A stretch of 64,000 bases of DNA, from the NCBI RefSeq assembly GCF_900111565.1, contig NZ_FOIK01000001.1, positions 2,139,309-2,203,308 of the forward strand, in the 5' to 3' direction. The DNA is from Paenibacillus sp. NFR01 (GTDB lineage Bacteria; Bacillota; Bacilli; Paenibacillales; Paenibacillaceae). The notes under the pieces are model-generated. The model was not told where the DNA came from. It ran no database searches and worked only from the letters and a program-made list of their open reading frames with translations. Shown piece by piece: positions 23,723 through 34,806 of this stretch (within the stretch, counting starts at the first letter, position 1; each line of letters starts with the position of its first letter). Made by a program: the position numbers and the translations under genes.

Positions 23723-23789
23723 GCAATCCAATACTTACCTCCTCATTCCATTATGGCACAGCGCTATAATTGGATTGAGGAGGTTTGTT

Positions 23790-24635
23790 ATGTTTATATC
23801 CCCTATGCTACTGCAGACGGCTCCAGGTCCGTTTTCGCACAGTGATTTTATATATGAGCCTAAGGTCGACGGGCACCGGTTGATTTACTCTCAACAGGGC
23901 GGAAACGTCCGGCTGTATACCCGGCACAATAACGACTGCACCCGGCAGTACCCCGAGCTTCAGCTACCGTTTGACGATGACATTATCTTGGACGGTGAGG
24001 TCGCCTGCGTCGATCCAGTGACCGGAGTGTCTGATTTTGAGTCGGTCATGAGCCGCTTCCAGGCGCGGCGGGCCGACAAGGTGAAGCAGCTCGCAGCCAC
24101 GCTGCCGGCTTATTACGCAATCTTTGACGTGCTGCATTATAAGGGGCAGGACATGCGCGGATTGCCGCTTATGCGCCGCAAAGAGGTACTCGCGGGGTTA
24201 TCCCTACCTTCTGCAAGCTTTGTCATTGTGTCGCATGTGGAAGGCGCTGGCGAGGCGCTGTTTGCACAGATTGAGGCGCGGGGCATGGAGGGCGTTGTCG
24301 GCAAACGAAAGCACAGCCTGTACGAAACCGGCCGCCGCAGCCACGCATGGCAAAAGGTCATTAACTGGGTGTATGCCGAGGTGTACATTACTGGATTTCG
24401 CAAACAGGAGTTTGGGTGGTTGGCGGCCGTGCCCGATCCGTCTGGCAGGCTGCGCCCGGCGGGGATCATCGAACTGGGAGCAAGCCCGCTGCATAAACAG
24501 GCGTTCCGCGGGGTGGCCGGGCAGCTTGTGACCGGCTGGAGCCCCGGCTGCGCGCGCAGGTCAGAATGTGAAACTGGACCAAGTCCGGCATGCTGCGGAG
24601 CCCAGTGTTTACGGAGTTCATCGTTTAATAAATAA
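23790..24635 (+). pseudogene. ATP-dependent DNA ligase, C-terminal OB domain damaged
   Basis: From ATG 23790 (GAGGAGG six bases upstream) the adenylation domain is intact: Lys25 in EPKVDGHR is the AMP-accepting residue, followed by LDGEVACVD, EGVVGKR and WQKVIN. After GQLVTG the frame is lost. The natural end (RLRAQVRM-NWTKSGMLRSPVFTEFIV) lies in another frame, ending at 24628, and is itself cut by TGA at 24569-24571. So there are two lesions, a small deletion and a nonsense change. The protein made would lack a proper OB domain, which ligases of this LigD-like type need for nick sealing. It probably once repaired or processed phage DNA. Confidence 0.8.
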
Positions 24636-25827: not shown

Positions 25828-25895
25828 TATCACCTCAGATCTATGCTAAATTACTCATTGTTCTTCTTACCCAAACCAAAATTCACCCTTAAATT

Positions 25896-25933
25896 AACGA
25901 AACCCGTCAGGCTAGTGCTTGGCGGGTTTCGTT
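25896..25933 (-). terminator. Terminator of the helicase operon
   Basis: AACGAAACCCG (25896-25906) and CGGGTTTCGTT (25923-25933) form a perfect 11-bp stem. It lies after the stop of the small helicase partner gene. Confidence 0.75.
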
Positions 25934-25967
25934 TTAGATAGATTGCTCTAAACTAAAGGCAGCATCT

Positions 25968-26303
25968 CTAAGCTGCAATCAGTTCATATATTTGTTCAAA
26001 ATACTTCATGTTGTTTGTTTCTAACAGTACCTTTGCAATTTCATCAATGCGACTGTAAATAACAAACACCTTCTCATCTTCGATCATTTCTATTTTTTGA
26101 ACGAGTCCTTTACTGTTAAAGTAATAATTCGCAACAATTTTTTTACCTTCATCCATAAAAATAACTTCCGCCATAGTTCCTTTTAAATAAGCGTCAAACT
26201 TCACACTTAAGTAATCTGGATCCTTGAGGTTATCCAACAAATCTTGTGGCCAAACTGAGTTTTTGTAAACCAAATCATATAATTCATTTGTAATGTTCTT
26301 CAT
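25968..26303 (-). CDS. Small partner gene of the prophage helicase
   Basis: The protein has 111 residues from ATG 26303 (AAGGAG eight bases upstream). It is acidic and soluble (KNITNELYDLVYKNSVWPQDLLDNLKD..., GKKIVANYYFNSKGLVQKIEMIEDE). I do not recognise it. It begins only 13 bases after the helicase stop and shares its terminator, so the two are co-transcribed and may act together. The DNA is AT-rich like the helicase gene and unlike the neighbouring tail genes. Confidence 0.75.
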   Translation of the reverse strand: MKNITNELYDLVYKNSVWPQDLLDNLKDPDYLSVKFDAYLKGTMAEVIFMDEGKKIVANYYFNSKGLVQKIEMIEDEKVFVIYSRIDEIAKVLLETNNMKYFEQIYELIAA

Positions 26304-26316
26304 CTCGCTCACTCCT

Positions 26317-28194
26317 TCATAATGAGGATTGTATCATCTCAGCTAAATGCTTAACAAGATCTCCTAAATACTCTTGTGCCCTAAAATAATCATCAAGAGC
26401 CCAAACATCCCTTGAACCAAATTCTTCTTTCAGCTTCTCATTTAAGTATCTCGTGACCAGCGCAGCATTATCCAATTTCAAATCATTCTTCAAGTAAAAA
26501 TACTTCGCTGGTAAAGCCTTTGCAAATTCCCTCCCTTCCTTTTCAACCCCGAATTCGCTAATGAGCCTTGCAGGAATATTAGCATAAACATTTTCATGGA
26601 ATTCTTTACGAATAAACATTCGATATTTTTTAGGAGACTTTAATAAAGGATTTTCTTCCTTGGGCTTTTCCTGCGAAATAATAAATTTTCTAATCTCCTC
26701 CTCAGCAGTATTAGGAAGCAAGTTTTTGAATGAGTCTATTTTATTTCTTAATTCAGCTTCAAATTTTTCGTTTTCTTCAGTCAGGGCAGTAGTCAAATAA
26801 TATTCCGACTCTGTATCCAATTCACCTAATAGTTCTACCTCAGCAACGCTTTTATCGTAGGTTTTTACGTCCAATTGCTTTGTTAGATTTTTTTCGGCTT
26901 TTTCTTGCTCTTTAACTTTTCGAATTACTTCACTTATCTTAAGTTCCCTTTGATATTCTTTCCAAAGCGGTTCCAGCCCTAAGTCTCGATGAGCAATAAC
27001 TGTACCAATATTATCAGAGGGTTTTACTGCATCTGGGCTATCAATAAATCTTAATATCCGTCCAATAAACTGCGAGTACGGAGCGAGTGATTTAAAAGGT
27101 CTAAAAATTGCGGCAACTGATAGGTAGATATGGTCGTAACCTTCTCCTAACATAGCCACATGGACAATAACGTCGCATCGATTGTTTTCTACATCAACTA
27201 GAATCCTTCTTCTGACATCCTTATCTAGATCGCTATGAATCAATCGAGCTCTTAAACCTTTTTCTTCATACATTTTTTCAAGAACTTCACCATGATCAAT
27301 ACTGCATGCAACAGCAATAATTTTATGTGGTATTTCCGATCCTAATCTTTTCGCATTTAGAGCGCTTATACTTTCATTGATGATCTGCTCATTGCACTCT
27401 TTGGAGAGGGCTACGCTTCTGGCAATATAATTCTCATCCTTTATGCCAAGGTCTCGAAGTTGTTCGATTGTATACTGTATAGAGAAATCATTGTCGATTG
27501 TTAAATAAACCTTTTCCGGAAGCAATTTAAAATTTTCTAAAGACTTTACGATATTTTGTTGCATAGCCCTTCCTAAACCGTAATCTGTAATAATTTTACC
27601 TTCAATAGGTTTTCTGTCTGTGCGGAAGGGCGTGCCAGTCACTTTAATCACTTTTGATTTGCTAAAGTAGTTTAAAGCGTTTTGCCAAGTTTCAGCAGGA
27701 GAATGGTGAGCTTCATCGATGATAATCATATCAAAAAAGTCAGCATCAACTCGATTCAATAAGGAATTTCTGAACCGAGTGGTTAGTTTATGTATGTTCA
27801 ATATTACAATGTTGCTGTTTACTAACTCATCTTGGTTAATATCGTTATCATACTCATTAACTATCGGTAGCTCCTTAAACTCTGTAAACACATTTCTCTT
27901 CAACCAAAAGTTACCCGGTTCAGAAGGATCAAGTGATTCTACTACGTGATCCTTGATAACGAGCTGTGGAGTTATAATAAGAACGCGACCTTTACAAATT
28001 CCGTAGGGGACAAGTGCCATTACTCCTGTTTTACCCGCGCCTGTCGGTAAAATGATAATAGCATCTCTACTAGATCCTTCTGTTTTAAAATGATTAAAGG
28101 CATCAACGTAAGCTAAAACCTGCGGCTCCCTAAGCTCATCATTTTCTACAATGCTTGGATTTGCGTTCATAAAATAATTAATATCAAATGTCAT
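26317..28194 (-). CDS. SF2 DEAD/DEAH-box helicase (type III restriction-like)
   Basis: The protein has 625 residues. Walker A PTGAGKT is at 50-56, DEAH at 160-163, VTGTPFRTD near 185-193, and motif VI QFIGRILR at 375-382. A long charged region without a nuclease motif fills residues 400-625. This is the ResIII-like helicase core of restriction and defence systems. GGGGG stands about eight bases before the ATG. The pair is flanked by terminators, lies after the lysis genes where prophages carry cargo, and is richer in AT than its surroundings. A role in excluding other phages is a reasonable inference but not shown. Confidence 0.88.
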   Translation of the reverse strand: MTFDINYFMNANPSIVENDELREPQVLAYVDAFNHFKTEGSSRDAIIILPTGAGKTGVMALVPYGICKGRVLIITPQLVIKDHVVESLDPSEPGNFWLKRNVFTEFKELPIVNEYDNDINQDELVNSNIVILNIHKLTTRFRNSLLNRVDADFFDMIIIDEAHHSPAETWQNALNYFSKSKVIKVTGTPFRTDRKPIEGKIITDYGLGRAMQQNIVKSLENFKLLPEKVYLTIDNDFSIQYTIEQLRDLGIKDENYIARSVALSKECNEQIINESISALNAKRLGSEIPHKIIAVACSIDHGEVLEKMYEEKGLRARLIHSDLDKDVRRRILVDVENNRCDVIVHVAMLGEGYDHIYLSVAAIFRPFKSLAPYSQFIGRILRFIDSPDAVKPSDNIGTVIAHRDLGLEPLWKEYQRELKISEVIRKVKEQEKAEKNLTKQLDVKTYDKSVAEVELLGELDTESEYYLTTALTEENEKFEAELRNKIDSFKNLLPNTAEEEIRKFIISQEKPKEENPLLKSPKKYRMFIRKEFHENVYANIPARLISEFGVEKEGREFAKALPAKYFYLKNDLKLDNAALVTRYLNEKLKEEFGSRDVWALDDYFRAQEYLGDLVKHLAEMIQSSL

Positions 28195-28292
28195 TTTATT
28201 TCCCCCGTTTTTTCAAATCACATCCTTAAATAGCATAATACGACAAAGTACAATTATTTCCTTTTTATTTACCCTCAATTTCCCCAAAAAGT

Positions 28293-28328
28293 TATTATGC
28301 CCACTAGCCGAAGTAAGTGGGCATAATA
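28293..28328 (-). terminator. Terminator of the tail-lysis operon
   Basis: TATTATGCCCACT (28293-28305) and AGTGGGCATAATA (28316-28328) form a perfect 13-bp stem. In the minus direction it is followed by CTTTTT. It separates the endolysin gene from the helicase promoter region. Confidence 0.88.
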
Positions 28329-28331
28329 GTA

Positions 28332-29159
28332 TTATTTATGATAAGCCAGCAGCCCCGCCCGCTCCATGATGGCGAGGATCCGGTAAAAGTCCTGGCTGCC
28401 CTCGTTTGGCGTATCAATCAGTCCCGCAGCTACGGCACCGTCAACCGCCGTTTTGGCCCAGGCCGGAATCTCCGGCAGGCTCGCCTTGCCCTCCAGCGTA
28501 ATCACACGCCCCGTCAGATCCTTGCTTTGCCCAGCCTGCTGCAGCACCTGATCTACGAGTACGTCGCGGCTTTTAGCCAGCTGTGCTACCGCTGCCTCCA
28601 GCGTGTCCAATCTCTTCTTGTCTTCAGCGCTCATTTCATCTTCCCCCTCTTCAATTCTCGCGATCTGCGAAACCACCGCAGCCAGTTGAGCCGCCGTCGG
28701 CTGTTTGCCCGCTCGGAAGTCGGCCGTACTCAAGCCGAAGTCCATCTGGAAATGTGGCAGGTCCTTAAAACTGCTCCAATCGCCGCCCCACTCCCAGCCA
28801 AGCCGCTTTGCATCCGCCACGACCTCCGACCAGTCCGCCAAGCCGTCACCGTCGCCGTCTCGCTTGGCGTCCCAACTCACGCCGCCATCGGGCAGCAGCA
28901 GCGTAAAGTCGATTGCCACGCCAAAATTATGATAGCTGTAGCCTCCGCGGGAGTTGGTGACGATCTGGCCGGGCGCCGTCCGGCCTTGCGCATAAAGCTT
29001 GTCTTGCTCGGCGATGGTACGTAGCCCCTGGGTGATGACGATCGGCACGCCGTGGGCATACGCAAACTCAATCAATGCTGTGGCCGCCTGACGGACGGTC
29101 GGCTCGAGACCGGCCAGCTTGGCCGCGGATTTGGCCTTGACCTGCTCCAATGTGTACAT
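28332..29159 (-). CDS. Phage endolysin, M15-type peptidase
   Basis: The protein has 275 residues without a signal peptide. The M15/VanY-like catalytic domain (about 1-140) shows the zinc-ligand pattern GGYSYHNFGVAIDF and DLPHFQ. It should cut a peptide bond in peptidoglycan stems after the holin opens the membrane. A coiled-coil linker (EDKKRLDTLEAAVAQLA) and a C-terminal part (AWAKTAVDGAVAAGLID) follow. It is immediately downstream of the holin gene, 2 bases apart. A close relative is encoded outside the prophage at 35419-36105. Confidence 0.92.
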   Translation of the reverse strand: MYTLEQVKAKSAAKLAGLEPTVRQAATALIEFAYAHGVPIVITQGLRTIAEQDKLYAQGRTAPGQIVTNSRGGYSYHNFGVAIDFTLLLPDGGVSWDAKRDGDGDGLADWSEVVADAKRLGWEWGGDWSSFKDLPHFQMDFGLSTADFRAGKQPTAAQLAAVVSQIARIEEGEDEMSAEDKKRLDTLEAAVAQLAKSRDVLVDQVLQQAGQSKDLTGRVITLEGKASLPEIPAWAKTAVDGAVAAGLIDTPNEGSQDFYRILAIMERAGLLAYHK

Positions 29160-29161
29160 GA

Positions 29162-29686
29162 TTATGCCCCTTTCTGGCTGTCGTCGCCGGCGTTGTCCGG
29201 GTGCTCCGGCTTGGCCGGGTTGTTCTTCGACTTATCCTCGCTCAGCTGCAGCAGGAAGTCCTGCAGGGCCTGCGGTAACGGCACGCCCAGCACGCCCAGG
29301 TTCTCGACAATGCTCAGGCCTTCGCGCCCGGCGTAAAAGTAAATGGCCGCGGTCCGGAAGATTGGTGATCCAGGCTGAATCCAGTCATCCATGAGCGAAG
29401 CCAAACCGACCACGAATAACACGACCGCCTTGCGCACGCCGCCCCAGAACATCACGTCACTGCTGACTGTCTTGGTCCGAAATGCGCCCATTACGCCGGT
29501 AGCGTAATCACCGCACATAAGCACGATCAACACCAGCAGCCCTTTGTCCCAGCCTCCCAGCAGGCCAGCCACTGTCCCCAGCACTCCCGCCATAGCCGAT
29601 GCTCCCCCCATTGCTACCTCGCGGCTCCCCGAGCCTACGGCAGCTGTGATAATTGTTGTGACGAGATTTTTGATTTGATTGATCAT
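29162..29686 (-). CDS. Phage holin
   Basis: The protein has 174 residues with membrane segments around GLLVLIVLMCGDYATGVMGAF and VRKAVVLFVVGLASLM. The segment YFYAGREGLSIVENLGVLGVPLP is typical of the phage_holin_4 (BhlA/toxin-secretion) family. The C-terminus is polar and charged. GGAGGG precedes the ATG. It forms the lysis cassette with the endolysin. Confidence 0.92.
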   Translation of the reverse strand: MINQIKNLVTTIITAAVGSGSREVAMGGASAMAGVLGTVAGLLGGWDKGLLVLIVLMCGDYATGVMGAFRTKTVSSDVMFWGGVRKAVVLFVVGLASLMDDWIQPGSPIFRTAAIYFYAGREGLSIVENLGVLGVPLPQALQDFLLQLSEDKSKNNPAKPEHPDNAGDDSQKGA

Positions 29687-30272: not shown

Positions 30273-31682
30273 CTATTCGTACGCAATCCACTGATAATCT
30301 GAGTTTCCTGGTGTCGGCAAACTAAATCCGCCACTCGTCAAATACGCATCCCCTGTAAGACGCACGTAGGAAATCGTTGTAGTCGTAAATAGTCCAACCA
30401 GTTTTGAACCCGCGGATACAGGTAAGCTGTCAGATCGAACAAACGATCCTATTGGAGTGGACGCAGAATTACGAATTAGCAAAACTACGGAGGGCGTAAA
30501 ATCGAGTCCGGTCACTGTCAGCGGGTACGCGGAAGTCGTCGAACCGGAAGCAAGAACGTACGTAGATAAGGGAGTAGCTGCCGATGTTGCTACGCCAGAG
30601 TTATACTTTTTCCCCGTAGGAATCAGCCCTATTTTTGTCGCCAATGCACTAAACGTATCCGACGGGCTTGCGGATACGCCTTTAGCAGTTATCGCGCTTG
30701 CTACTGCTGTTTTACCGCCATTGGCAAACGTAAAAAGCTCTGTGAGTACCGATTCTACATTTGTGCCGGCAAAGTGATTACCGGTATCTTCTACAGCAAT
30801 ATTTTTCGCTTTATGCGCACCCGTAGCGGCGTCAGCTGCATGGTTTGTAAGATTCGTTTGTACTGCATTAGCCTTAGCTGTCGCATCTGACGCTGCCGTA
30901 GACGTGGCTGCCGCCTGTGCAGCGTCCGCCTTGGATTGCGCGCCGGTCTTGGTCTCCCCAGTGAACCGGACAAACGTGGCGTCAGCGCCGCTCATTAACC
31001 CACTGGCGCCGCCGGTGACGGCAATCGGGATCACGTACGTGCCCCCGGTGATGTGACTACTGGCGTGCGGTCCTGGCGTCGACTCGCCTGTCGCGGTAAA
31101 TGTCAGCTTACCGGCTGCCGGATCTGTCGTTATTGTAAGACCTGTTCCTGCAGCAAACGTGAGAGTTCCCGTCTCGCTTTGTGCGATGATGTCTCCCTGG
31201 CCGGTAACGACAATCTTGCTAAAGGCATTCTGATTGACTTCGGCGCCTGCAGCGATGCCGGCCAGCTTTGTATGCTCCGCCGCCGTCACGTGCAGCGTCG
31301 TGTCCGCAGCGTGCGTGTCCAGTTCCGCTTGCGTGGCTACGTCCGCGGCCACCTTTGCGGCTGTAATGCTGCCGTCCGCGATCTGGCCGGTGCCAACCGC
31401 CCCAGCTCCGAGTTTTGCGGCGGTGACGGAGCCGTCAGCGAGCTTAGCTGCCGTGACCGCTGCGTCACCGAGCTGCCCGGTACCGACCGCGTTGTCGCCG
31501 ATTTTGGCCCGAGTCGCGGCCTTGTCGGCCAGTTTGGCCGTCGAGACGCTGCCGTCCGGATGATCCAGCGTGGCGGCCGTCTTGTGCGCCGTCGCTGCCG
31601 TGTCTACTCCGTCAAAGTTGTCGTTGATCTTCGTATAGGACTCACTGATCTTCTCGTTTCCGTTCAGGTGCTGGTATGCCAT
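30273..31682 (-). CDS. Phage tail fibre protein
   Basis: The protein has about 469 residues from ATG 31682 (AAAGGAAG upstream). After AYQHLNGNEKISESYTKINDNF come short repeats of the type DGSVTAAKLGAGAVGTGQI, an Ala/Thr-rich shaft, and a C-terminal beta-rich head ending in STPGNSDYQWIAYE-like sequence (PTPGNSDYQWIAYE). Such repeats build trimeric fibres. It would have bound the host surface. Confidence 0.88.
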   Translation of the reverse strand: MAYQHLNGNEKISESYTKINDNFDGVDTAATAHKTAATLDHPDGSVSTAKLADKAATRAKIGDNAVGTGQLGDAAVTAAKLADGSVTAAKLGAGAVGTGQIADGSITAAKVAADVATQAELDTHAADTTLHVTAAEHTKLAGIAAGAEVNQNAFSKIVVTGQGDIIAQSETGTLTFAAGTGLTITTDPAAGKLTFTATGESTPGPHASSHITGGTYVIPIAVTGGASGLMSGADATFVRFTGETKTGAQSKADAAQAAATSTAASDATAKANAVQTNLTNHAADAATGAHKAKNIAVEDTGNHFAGTNVESVLTELFTFANGGKTAVASAITAKGVSASPSDTFSALATKIGLIPTGKKYNSGVATSAATPLSTYVLASGSTTSAYPLTVTGLDFTPSVVLLIRNSASTPIGSFVRSDSLPVSAGSKLVGLFTTTTISYVRLTGDAYLTSGGFSLPTPGNSDYQWIAYE

Positions 31683-31863
31683 TCGCTTCACTTCCTTTCG
31701 TGATTAACTCGAGCCGCTTTTGTACTGCATCAGCGACGCCGAGTAAAATATTTACCTCGTGGTCCGGGTTGTAGGGCATCATCGCTGATATGACGGCCAG
31801 TATCTCTGGAACAGGTTGTCTCGGATCAAGCTCGACGAAGACTTTCGGCATGATGTTTGCCAA
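31642..31863 (-). CDS. Small phage tail-region protein
   Basis: The protein has 73 residues from TTG 31863, eight bases after TAAGGAGGT. It reads ANIMPKVFVELDPRQPVPEILAVISAMMPYNPDHEVNILLGVADAVQKR. It overlaps the start of the tail-fibre gene by about 40 bases. The longer frame upstream (to 31974) lacks a ribosome binding site and is rejected. Function unknown. Confidence 0.65.
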   Translation of the reverse strand: MANIMPKVFVELDPRQPVPEILAVISAMMPYNPDHEVNILLGVADAVQKRLELITKGSEANGIPAPERKREDQ

Positions 31864-34627: not shown

Positions 34628-34684
34628 ATGCCGAGGACGGGGGTCGAACCCGTACGATGGTCACCCATCGCAGGATTTTAAGTC
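34628..34684 (-). repeat. Right attachment repeat (attR)
   Basis: It is identical to 20874-20930 over 57 bases and lies within the intact tRNA-Leu gene. The phage copy restores the tRNA 3' end. Confidence 0.95.
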
Positions 34685-34714
34685 CTGTGCGTCTGCCTAT
34701 TCCGCCACCCCGGC
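34629..34714 (-). tRNA. tRNA-Leu (UAA)
   Basis: The gene has 86 nt. The acceptor stem is GCCGGGG/CCTCGGC with discriminator A. The anticodon loop CTTAAAA carries anticodon TAA, and there is a long class II variable arm (GATGGGTGACCATC). The CCA end is not encoded. It is the prophage attachment gene. Confidence 0.97.
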
Positions 34715-34806
34715 ACGTAACCGCGTAGTTAACGCGACAAGCAATATCATACCATGGTTTTAAACTTGGTGCAATCCTCTTTTATCCATGGCGGACAGGA
34801 ATAAAA

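What the first reader, a model, noticed from the sequence alone, without database searches (positions are those of the whole stretch)
25968..28194. Helicase plus small partner gene as prophage cargo: candidate defence pair
A 625-residue ResIII-like SF2 helicase with intact Walker A, DEAH and motif VI is followed 13 bases later by an unrecognised 111-residue gene. The pair has its own promoter region and terminators, is AT-rich, and lies after the lysis genes. It stayed intact while neighbours decayed, which suggests selection. Two-gene helicase systems against phages are known, but this partner is not one I recognise.
Basis: inference. Interest (0 to 1): 0.68.

Follow-up and report, generated by a model that had tools for sequence, protein, structure and literature searches.

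The report
Mobile helicase with obligatory small partner
What looks like a decayed virus in a Paenibacillus chromosome still carries an intact two-gene cassette, a DNA helicase plus a small unrecognised partner, which recurs in proviruses, plasmids and satellites of many bacteria and most likely helps one mobile element fight off others.

Summary
In detail: an intact 625-aa ResIII/SF2 helicase (26317-28194, minus strand) is followed after 13 nt by an unrecognised 111-aa gene, in AT-rich DNA between hairpins beside a holin-endolysin. In 156 loci fetched by helicase alone, all 146 with room downstream carry a small partner gene: 119 the window's kind (B), 27 an unrelated Cys/His protein (Z); the other 10 stop at contig edges. 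Partner type changes once on the helicase tree. Homes are provirus ends, plasmids and, in E. coli, the int-psu slot of P4-like satellites, a published, tested anti-phage hotspot (167 of 5,426 genomes). No nuclease fold shows: the motor is RadD-like, the C-terminus helical. Partner B has a confident alpha/beta model and no known family. Lone B genes lie in Leptospira and Paenibacillus plasmids or phage-plasmids without the helicase, each nearest to paired copies of its own host lineage. I read the pair as a mobile defence module whose partner restrains the helicase, and lone copies as antidotes. Defence is inferred from position and company; there is no phage assay, and restraint is the weakest step.

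The parts
26317..28194 (-). SF2 helicase, 625 aa; RadD-like two-RecA motor (about residues 12-420), low-confidence linker 444-472, helical C-terminal part (470-625)
   Evidence: ORF; ResIII + Helicase_C; alignments; model and fold matches
25968..26303 (-). partner B, 111 aa (114 aa from GTG at 26312); two helices, five-strand sheet, two helices; net charge -6
   Evidence: ORF; phrog_12848 (function unknown) 6.9e-14; no convincing Pfam, NCBIfam or PADLOC family; model pLDDT 91.9; charge
25895..25950 (-). hairpin after the partner gene, terminator candidate
   Evidence: RNA fold -22.9 kcal/mol, z -6.1, 0 of 200 shuffles as good; not listed by the consensus scan
28285..28335 (-). hairpin followed by a T run between the endolysin and helicase genes, terminator candidate that separates the pair from the lysis genes
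   Evidence: RNA fold -20.0 kcal/mol, z -7.0, 0 of 200 shuffles as good; not listed by the consensus scan
28332..29159 (-). endolysin of the provirus remnant (context, not part of the pair)
   Evidence: phrog_2649 endolysin 1.1e-44
29162..29686 (-). holin of the provirus remnant (context)
   Evidence: phrog_199 holin 6e-20
30273..31691 (-). tail-fibre gene of the provirus remnant (context)
   Evidence: phrog_28766 tail fiber protein 2.3e-14

Best explanation
The pair is a two-gene conflict (most likely anti-phage) module carried as cargo by proviruses, phage satellites and plasmids. SHOWN: an SF2 helicase with a RadD-like motor is followed, in every examined locus with room for it, by a small partner gene, mostly close by or overlapping; the module sits in accessory slots of mobile elements, among them the P4 int-psu slot; lone partner genes exist in plasmids and phage-plasmids in which no helicase was found. 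INFERRED: the helicase is the active part and acts on DNA (forks, ends or other phage replication intermediates); partner B binds it, perhaps through the helical C-terminal part, and keeps it harmless in the uninfected cell; infection or a rival element upsets this balance and the freed helicase blocks replication or the cell; lone partner copies act as antidotes. In a sister clade an unrelated basic Cys/His partner (Z), often with an N-terminal extension of the helicase (a MerR-type domain in the one scanned), fills the same gene position.
For: Pairing: loci fetched by helicase alone give 60 B + 16 Z + 4 contig-edge of 80 (genomes) and 59 B + 11 Z + 6 contig-edge of 76 (viruses); the 10 without a partner have at most 158 nt after the helicase reading frame. 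Survey of 392 genomes of the order, the window's own included: 20 helicase places; 17 intact with B, 1 intact with Z, 1 truncated without partner, 1 broken together with its partner; no intact helicase without partner. Partner type changes once on a tree of 116 helicases, 100% support. Mobile homes: in 46 of 57 viral contigs of 25 kb or more it lies within a quarter of the contig length from one end, where half are expected; median 10.7%. P4 slot: a query of int end, pair and psu is covered to at least 80% in 167 of 5,426 E. coli genomes; 4 of 4 opened loci read int-helicase-small gene-psu; Psu and integrase confirmed by Pfam in relatives; 7 of 19 cassettes cloned from that slot gave phage resistance (PMC9122126, section 8 read). 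Lone partners: 0 of 6 records carry the helicase; two separate origins, each nested with paired copies of its own host lineage (100/100 and 100/99). Partner dN/dS 0.08 for window against L008.
Against: No phage assay. 12 of the 19 cassettes cloned from the P4 slot showed no robust resistance, so the slot alone does not prove defence. Sequenced phage records lack the module: 0 of 171 matching records cover 80% of the helicase, and the partner has no match in 50,697 records (single-sequence tblastn). At most 2 of 139 neighbours match any one PADLOC family shown (25 of 217 families shown), so how many neighbours are defence genes is unknown; no control set was scanned. Lone partners come from two host lineages only, and one search had no positive control. 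Decay cases are few: helicase broken with B kept in G357 and L176 and with Z kept in L099; helicase truncated without partner in G170. That is too little to show toxin-antitoxin asymmetry. The partner fold has no confident match, so 'inhibitor' is not read from structure.
Confidence: 0.5

Rival explanations
1. Same module, opposite role: the partner is a sensor or co-effector that the helicase needs (as HamA and HamB need each other in Hachiman), not an inhibitor. Lone copies would then be dominant-negative or have another job.
For: Pairing is absolute in both clades, as expected of two subunits of one machine; the basic Cys/His protein of the Z clade (net +2 to +9 in 23 of 23) looks more like a nucleic-acid reader than an inhibitor.
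Against: Partner B is mostly acidic (median net charge -3 over 117 distinct sequences, range -13 to +5) and is kept alone in plasmids and phage-plasmids; no nuclease fold was found for it.
Confidence: 0.25
2. Addiction or maintenance module (toxin-antitoxin without immunity): it stabilises proviruses and plasmids, and lone partners are anti-addiction genes.
For: Plasmid and provirus homes; two of four Leptospira interrogans strains whose pair plasmid is in the collection also hold a lone-partner phage-plasmid in it.
Against: The P4 slot between int and psu and the terminal position in proviruses are where defence cargo is known. Toxin-antitoxin pairs can do both, so this overlaps with the best explanation.
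Confidence: 0.15
3. DNA repair or replication helper of the mobile element itself (RadD-like), no conflict role.
For: Closest solved motor is RadD (Z 23.5, rmsd 3.5 over 324); NCBIfam RadD is the top family though far below its cut-off (62.7 against 720 bits).
Against: It lies near provirus ends, in the window after the lysis genes, is absent from most relatives (found in 19 of 392 genomes), and shares the P4 slot with many interchangeable cassettes (PMC9122126).
Confidence: 0.1

Closest known systems
Helicase + DUF2290 system (P4 hotspot, active against T7; PMC9122126)
   Same: Two-gene helicase module reported in P4-like satellites and a Bacillus prophage hotspot (passages)
   Different: The window partner has no DUF2290 match at E up to 1; partner B is 101-150 aa in relatives
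Hachiman (HamAB; PMC12278908)
   Same: Two genes, SF2 helicase plus a partner of formerly unknown function
   Different: HamB is Ski2-like and HamA is a DUF1837 D-E(X)K nuclease (passages); here the motor is closest to RadD and the partner neither matches DUF1837 nor shows a nuclease fold
RqlHI (RecQ-like helicase and its restraint RqlI; PMC4670107, abstract and outline seen)
   Same: Works-like model: a helicase whose toxicity is held by a partner encoded in the same operon
   Different: RqlH toxicity lies in a PRTase domain, not found here; RqlI counts as a DprA homologue (PMC9122126 passage), the window partner does not match one; rqlH is often found without rqlI
RadD (DNA repair helicase)
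   Same: Nearest solved motor domain
   Different: 62.7 bits against an NCBIfam cut-off of 720; matched over the motor only (residues 12-417); no partner gene known to me
phrog_12848 (virus protein family of unknown function)
   Same: Partner B matches it at 6.9e-14 over residues 4-96 of the 114-aa form
   Different: No function or helicase link is given there

Membership tests
Hachiman | DUF1837 nuclease partner (HamA) | tested here: not met
   Window partner: no DUF1837 at E up to 1 in Pfam, no HamA in PADLOC
Hachiman | HamB-type (Ski2-like) helicase | tested here: not met
   No HamB model among PADLOC matches of the window helicase at E up to 1, nor among the 15 families that 69 sequences match
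Helicase-DUF2290 | DUF2290 partner | tested here: not met
   No such match for the window partner; not among the 25 of 66 families shown for 97 partners
Type III restriction-modification | Mod methyltransferase gene next to Res, and an endonuclease domain in Res | tested here: not met
   The pair's neighbours are endolysin on one side and only ORFs of at most 140 aa up to the ligase-like gene on the other; C-terminal part helical
RadD | NCBIfam equivalog cut-off 720 bits | tested here: not met
   62.7 bits
RqlHI / PsyrTA | PRTase domain in the helicase and DprA-like partner | tested here: not met
   Neither appears in Pfam for the window proteins; PADLOC PsyrT matches at 1.1e-5 (residues 304-477)
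RqlHI / PsyrTA | helicase toxic alone, restrained by partner | not testable with these tools
   needs expression in cells
Anti-phage defence system | reduces phage plating when transferred | not testable with these tools
   no assay; only position and company
DISARM DrmC | DrmC-like protein | tested here: not met
   Only the window's own partner of 97 matches, E 8e-4 over 63 residues
PUR-alpha / cystatin / UGI folds | shared fold with partner B | tested here: inconclusive
   Best Z 6.5; PUR repeats Z 5.7, rmsd 2.1 over 47; UGI Z 5.1 over 63; Foldseek has no match at E 0.001 or better

The most novel reading that the evidence does not exclude
An unnamed immune module found across several phyla, in which one RadD-like helicase family works with exchangeable small partners (acidic alpha/beta B, or basic Cys/His Z with a MerR-type domain on the helicase), and which phages and plasmids counter by carrying free copies of the partner itself, captured at least twice from modules of the local host lineage.
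Probability: 0.33. Interest if true: 0.8.

Novelty: new variant of a known kind. Interest (0 to 1): 0.62.

Why it matters
If true it adds a common two-gene helicase system to bacterial immunity, present in about 3% of the complete E. coli genomes searched (167 of 5,426) in a slot already shown to hold anti-phage genes, yet not recognised by the PADLOC library of 2023. The lone partners would give a ready-made test of a simple escape route: an element that carries the system's own restraint. The B/Z exchange offers a natural experiment on what the partner does.

Tried and rejected
Hidden nuclease in residues 400-625: the model shows only helices after the motor; the helical part was not folded or searched alone, so its fold stays open. 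Partner as an RRM (PF23085, E 0.04), as DrmC (E 8e-4, 1 of 97) or as DUF4595 (12 of 97 members, best 3e-4): weak, rejected. DNA mimicry for partner B: median net charge only -3, range -13 to +5, UGI Z 5.1; not claimed. Z as a diverged B: the B model found none of the 33 downstream ORFs (true Z proteins and overlapping spurious ORFs); kept apart. Helicase dN/dS: synonymous sites saturated for close pairs, no ratio. Docking at the C-terminal part: B-Z pairs have lower C-terminal identity than B-B pairs of like motor identity (0.160, n 1283, against 0.212, n 24), too few to lean on; that script stopped with an error before its last table. Partner queries found nothing in genome contigs, viral contigs or phage records; lone-partner queries found none in phage records. 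Literature: nine searches answered; no title or abstract opening listed is about this pair. Supplementary tables, where the P4 cassettes of PMC9122126 are listed, could not be read; the E. coli version may be there, perhaps as the 'type-III restriction enzyme' its text names.

Weak spots: locus types were first called with a 50-aa ORF floor; five Z partners (L099, L184-L187) were added by hand because their ORFs start upstream or their helicase is interrupted. Gaps and extensions use the longest ORF, which overstates overlap. Searches list the best 80 hits only and share near-copies. Sequences were thinned at 85-88% identity; of 112 helicase representatives I put 69 rows into A7, leaving out plasmid rows, Z helicases and others. 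The partner tree left out partners over 125 aa and near-copies. The neighbour set took at most three ORFs of 110-700 aa from 52 of 80 genome loci (145 proteins); I dropped six from two near-duplicate loci (L065, L070), so 139 from 50 loci were scanned, with the first 25 families shown. Two Leptospira records (NZ_CP092159, NZ_CP092671) hold a second partner match that I did not open.

Full report
WHAT IS THERE. On the minus strand the window holds an intact 625-aa helicase gene (26317-28194) and, 13 nt on, an intact 111-aa gene (25968-26303; an upstream GTG would make it 114 aa). Walker A, DEAH and motif VI are complete. Pfam gives ResIII and Helicase_C. The pair is AT-rich (35.7% GC against 52.3% in the window), lies directly after an endolysin, holin and tail-fibre run and is bracketed by two strong hairpins (z -6.1 and -7.0), although the consensus scan lists neither of them and finds terminator-like and promoter-like sites no more often than in shuffled sequence. 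Ten ORFs of the region were scanned against PHROGs: lysis, tail, regulator and unknown families, no capsid or terminase; I did not scan every ORF. One portal and one terminase family have no match in the whole host genome, while both ring in control genomes. The ligase-like neighbour has lost its frame near 24536, while its homologue beside a pair of the same kind in L009 is intact. So the pair has stayed whole in what looks like a provirus remnant.

THE PARTNER IS OBLIGATE IN WHAT I COULD SEE. Two searches used the helicase family alone. In genome contigs the best 80 loci carry the window-type partner (B) in 60, another small gene (Z) in 16, and nothing in 4; in viral contigs 76 loci give 59 B, 11 Z and 6 without. 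All ten without a partner have at most 158 nt after the helicase reading frame. That leaves 146 of 146. Near-copies are included; among the 142 distinct helicase sequences of these two searches have B, 25 Z and 10 none. More distant relatives were not examined. A survey of 392 genomes of the window's order, its own genome included, found 20 helicase places in 19 genomes at E 1e-60: 17 intact helicases with B, one intact with Z (G398), one cut short without partner (G170, next to ORFs that look transposase-like to me), and one in pieces together with its partner (G247, second place). Four of the 17 were listed with a stop inside the match; their ORFs are intact. In one further genome (G357) a B gene stands beside an ORF that looks like a transposase, with no helicase match. 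A helicase split between two frames with B intact occurs in L176, and an interrupted one with Z in L099. In 80 of 141 B loci the two genes touch or overlap when the longest ORF is taken; the median gap is -1.

TWO KINDS OF PARTNER. B proteins are 101-150 aa as ORFs and share P19, L22, Y31, Y60 and R85 in at least 90% of 97 sequences. Z proteins are mostly 70-92 aa with conserved Cys and His residues; the B model does not find them. On a tree of 116 helicases (92 B, 24 Z) partner type changes once, at 100% support (FastTree, root at midpoint). An N-terminal extension of 50 residues or more occurs in 22 of 31 Z helicases and 0 of 135 B helicases counted; in the one scanned (L074) it is a MerR-type domain (1.2e-12). 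B proteins are mostly acidic (median net charge -3, 117 distinct), the Z proteins of A8 all basic (+2 to +9, 23 of 23).

STRUCTURE. Partner B of the window is predicted with high confidence (pLDDT 91.9) as two helices, a five-strand sheet and two helices. No solved or viral structure matches convincingly: Foldseek has nothing at E 0.001 or better and the best VIA-align Z is 6.5, with PUR-alpha repeats, UGI and cystatin-like designs among the rows, a level the tool calls common. The helicase motor is closest to RadD (Z 23.5, rmsd 3.5 over 324 residues). After a low-confidence linker (444-472) the rest is helical, with no nuclease-like sheet.

WHERE IT LIVES. In the 57 of 76 viral contigs that are at least 25 kb long the helicase lies a median 10.7% of the contig length from one end; 46 of 57 are within 25% of an end, where half are expected (p 1.7e-6). 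The set holds near relatives, and contig ends may be trimmed unevenly, so the p-value is generous. Other copies are on plasmids. Isolate phage records lack it: the helicase's matches there are partial and 20-odd per cent identical (0 of 171 records cover 80% of it) and the partner has none. The neighbours of 50 genome loci are mixed, integrases leading; at most two match any one PADLOC family shown. The most telling home is in enterobacteria. In relatives L069, L151 and L161 the pair lies beside Psu, and in L069 and L151 on the other side a tyrosine integrase, by Pfam. A query that spans the end of int, the pair and psu is covered to at least 80% in 167 of 5,426 complete E. coli genomes; all 15 rows listed name the polarity-suppression gene and an integrase, and the four loci I opened have the order int-helicase-small gene-psu. 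Of the 5,426, 39 hold a near-identical copy of the pair itself. The locus between psu and int of P4-like satellites is a described hotspot: 19 cassettes were cloned and seven gave robust phage resistance (PMC9122126, section 8 and passages read).

LONE PARTNERS. B also occurs without the helicase in a Paenibacillus larvae plasmid, with an identical gene in an IMG/VR contig, and in Leptospira plasmids and viral contigs, one with terminase and portal genes nearby. Six such records searched whole gave no helicase (no positive control in that call). A tree of 69 partners needs two origins for the lone state: the Leptospira lone genes group with Leptospira paired genes (100/100), the P. larvae one with the window and its two closest paired relatives (100/99). 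Few columns make other parts of that tree unsure. Paired copies lie on other Leptospira plasmids beside a caspase-family gene. Of the four L. interrogans strains with the pair plasmid in the collection, two (FMAS_AP6, FMAS_PD1) also have a lone-partner plasmid in it; for the other two none is listed.

HOW IT MOST LIKELY WORKS. Shown by sequence: a tightly linked pair with no exception found; mobile homes including a tested anti-phage slot; two exchangeable partner types; lone copies of one partner in mobile elements. Inferred: the helicase attacks or blocks DNA replication intermediates of incoming elements; the partner holds it in check; elements that carry the partner alone escape. The lone copies and the absence of any intact helicase without partner fit restraint better than co-activity, but do not prove it: two subunits of one machine would also always travel together. 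RqlHI (abstract seen) shows that a helicase with a restraining partner exists in nature.

KNOWN OR NEW. Pfam, NCBIfam and PADLOC 2023 give no convincing family for the partner, and for the helicase no defence model beyond its motor. Nine literature searches listed nothing on the pair by title or abstract opening, and the accession numbers of three of its proteins are in no held paper. By its place the E. coli version may well be among the cassettes counted in PMC9122126; its supplementary tables could not be read. I therefore call it a new variant of a known kind, two-gene helicase systems of mobile elements, rather than a new kind.

SCORE. Interest 0.62: the pairing and the P4 position are solid and the lone partners give a sharp test; function is still inference.

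Noticed in passing
window 23775-24635: ATP-dependent DNA ligase-like gene beside the pair, frame lost near 24536; an intact homologue lies beside a pair of the same kind in L009 (8428-9276; DNA_ligase_A_M 4.5e-24).
   Followed up: partly
L006 3238-3975; L013 3167-3904; L246, L248, L249: A caspase-domain gene (Peptidase_C14 6.6e-14 for L006) lies directly upstream of the helicase pair on Leptospira plasmids.
   Followed up: partly
L237 4803-5354 and 9035-10078: A TIR-domain gene (TIR_2 1.3e-6) and an ORF that looks like a protein kinase flank a Z-type pair in a chromosome of the window's order.
   Followed up: partly
L020 (6.2-kb Hafnia plasmid), with similar hits in Serratia, Salmonella and Klebsiella plasmids: A very small mobilizable plasmid carries a Z-type pair overlapping the replication gene; odd cargo for so small a plasmid.
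   Followed up: no
L239 (G247:C3): A second, decayed copy of the pair in a genome that also has an intact one; helicase and partner are both in pieces.
   Followed up: partly
genome loci of the neighbour set: Three of 139 neighbour proteins belong to the SPOUT methyltransferase family, which may mean insertions next to rlmH (name recalled) in some hosts.
   Followed up: no
window 34628-34715: tRNA-Leu beyond the provirus remnant, a possible attachment site; no site repeat was sought.
   Followed up: no
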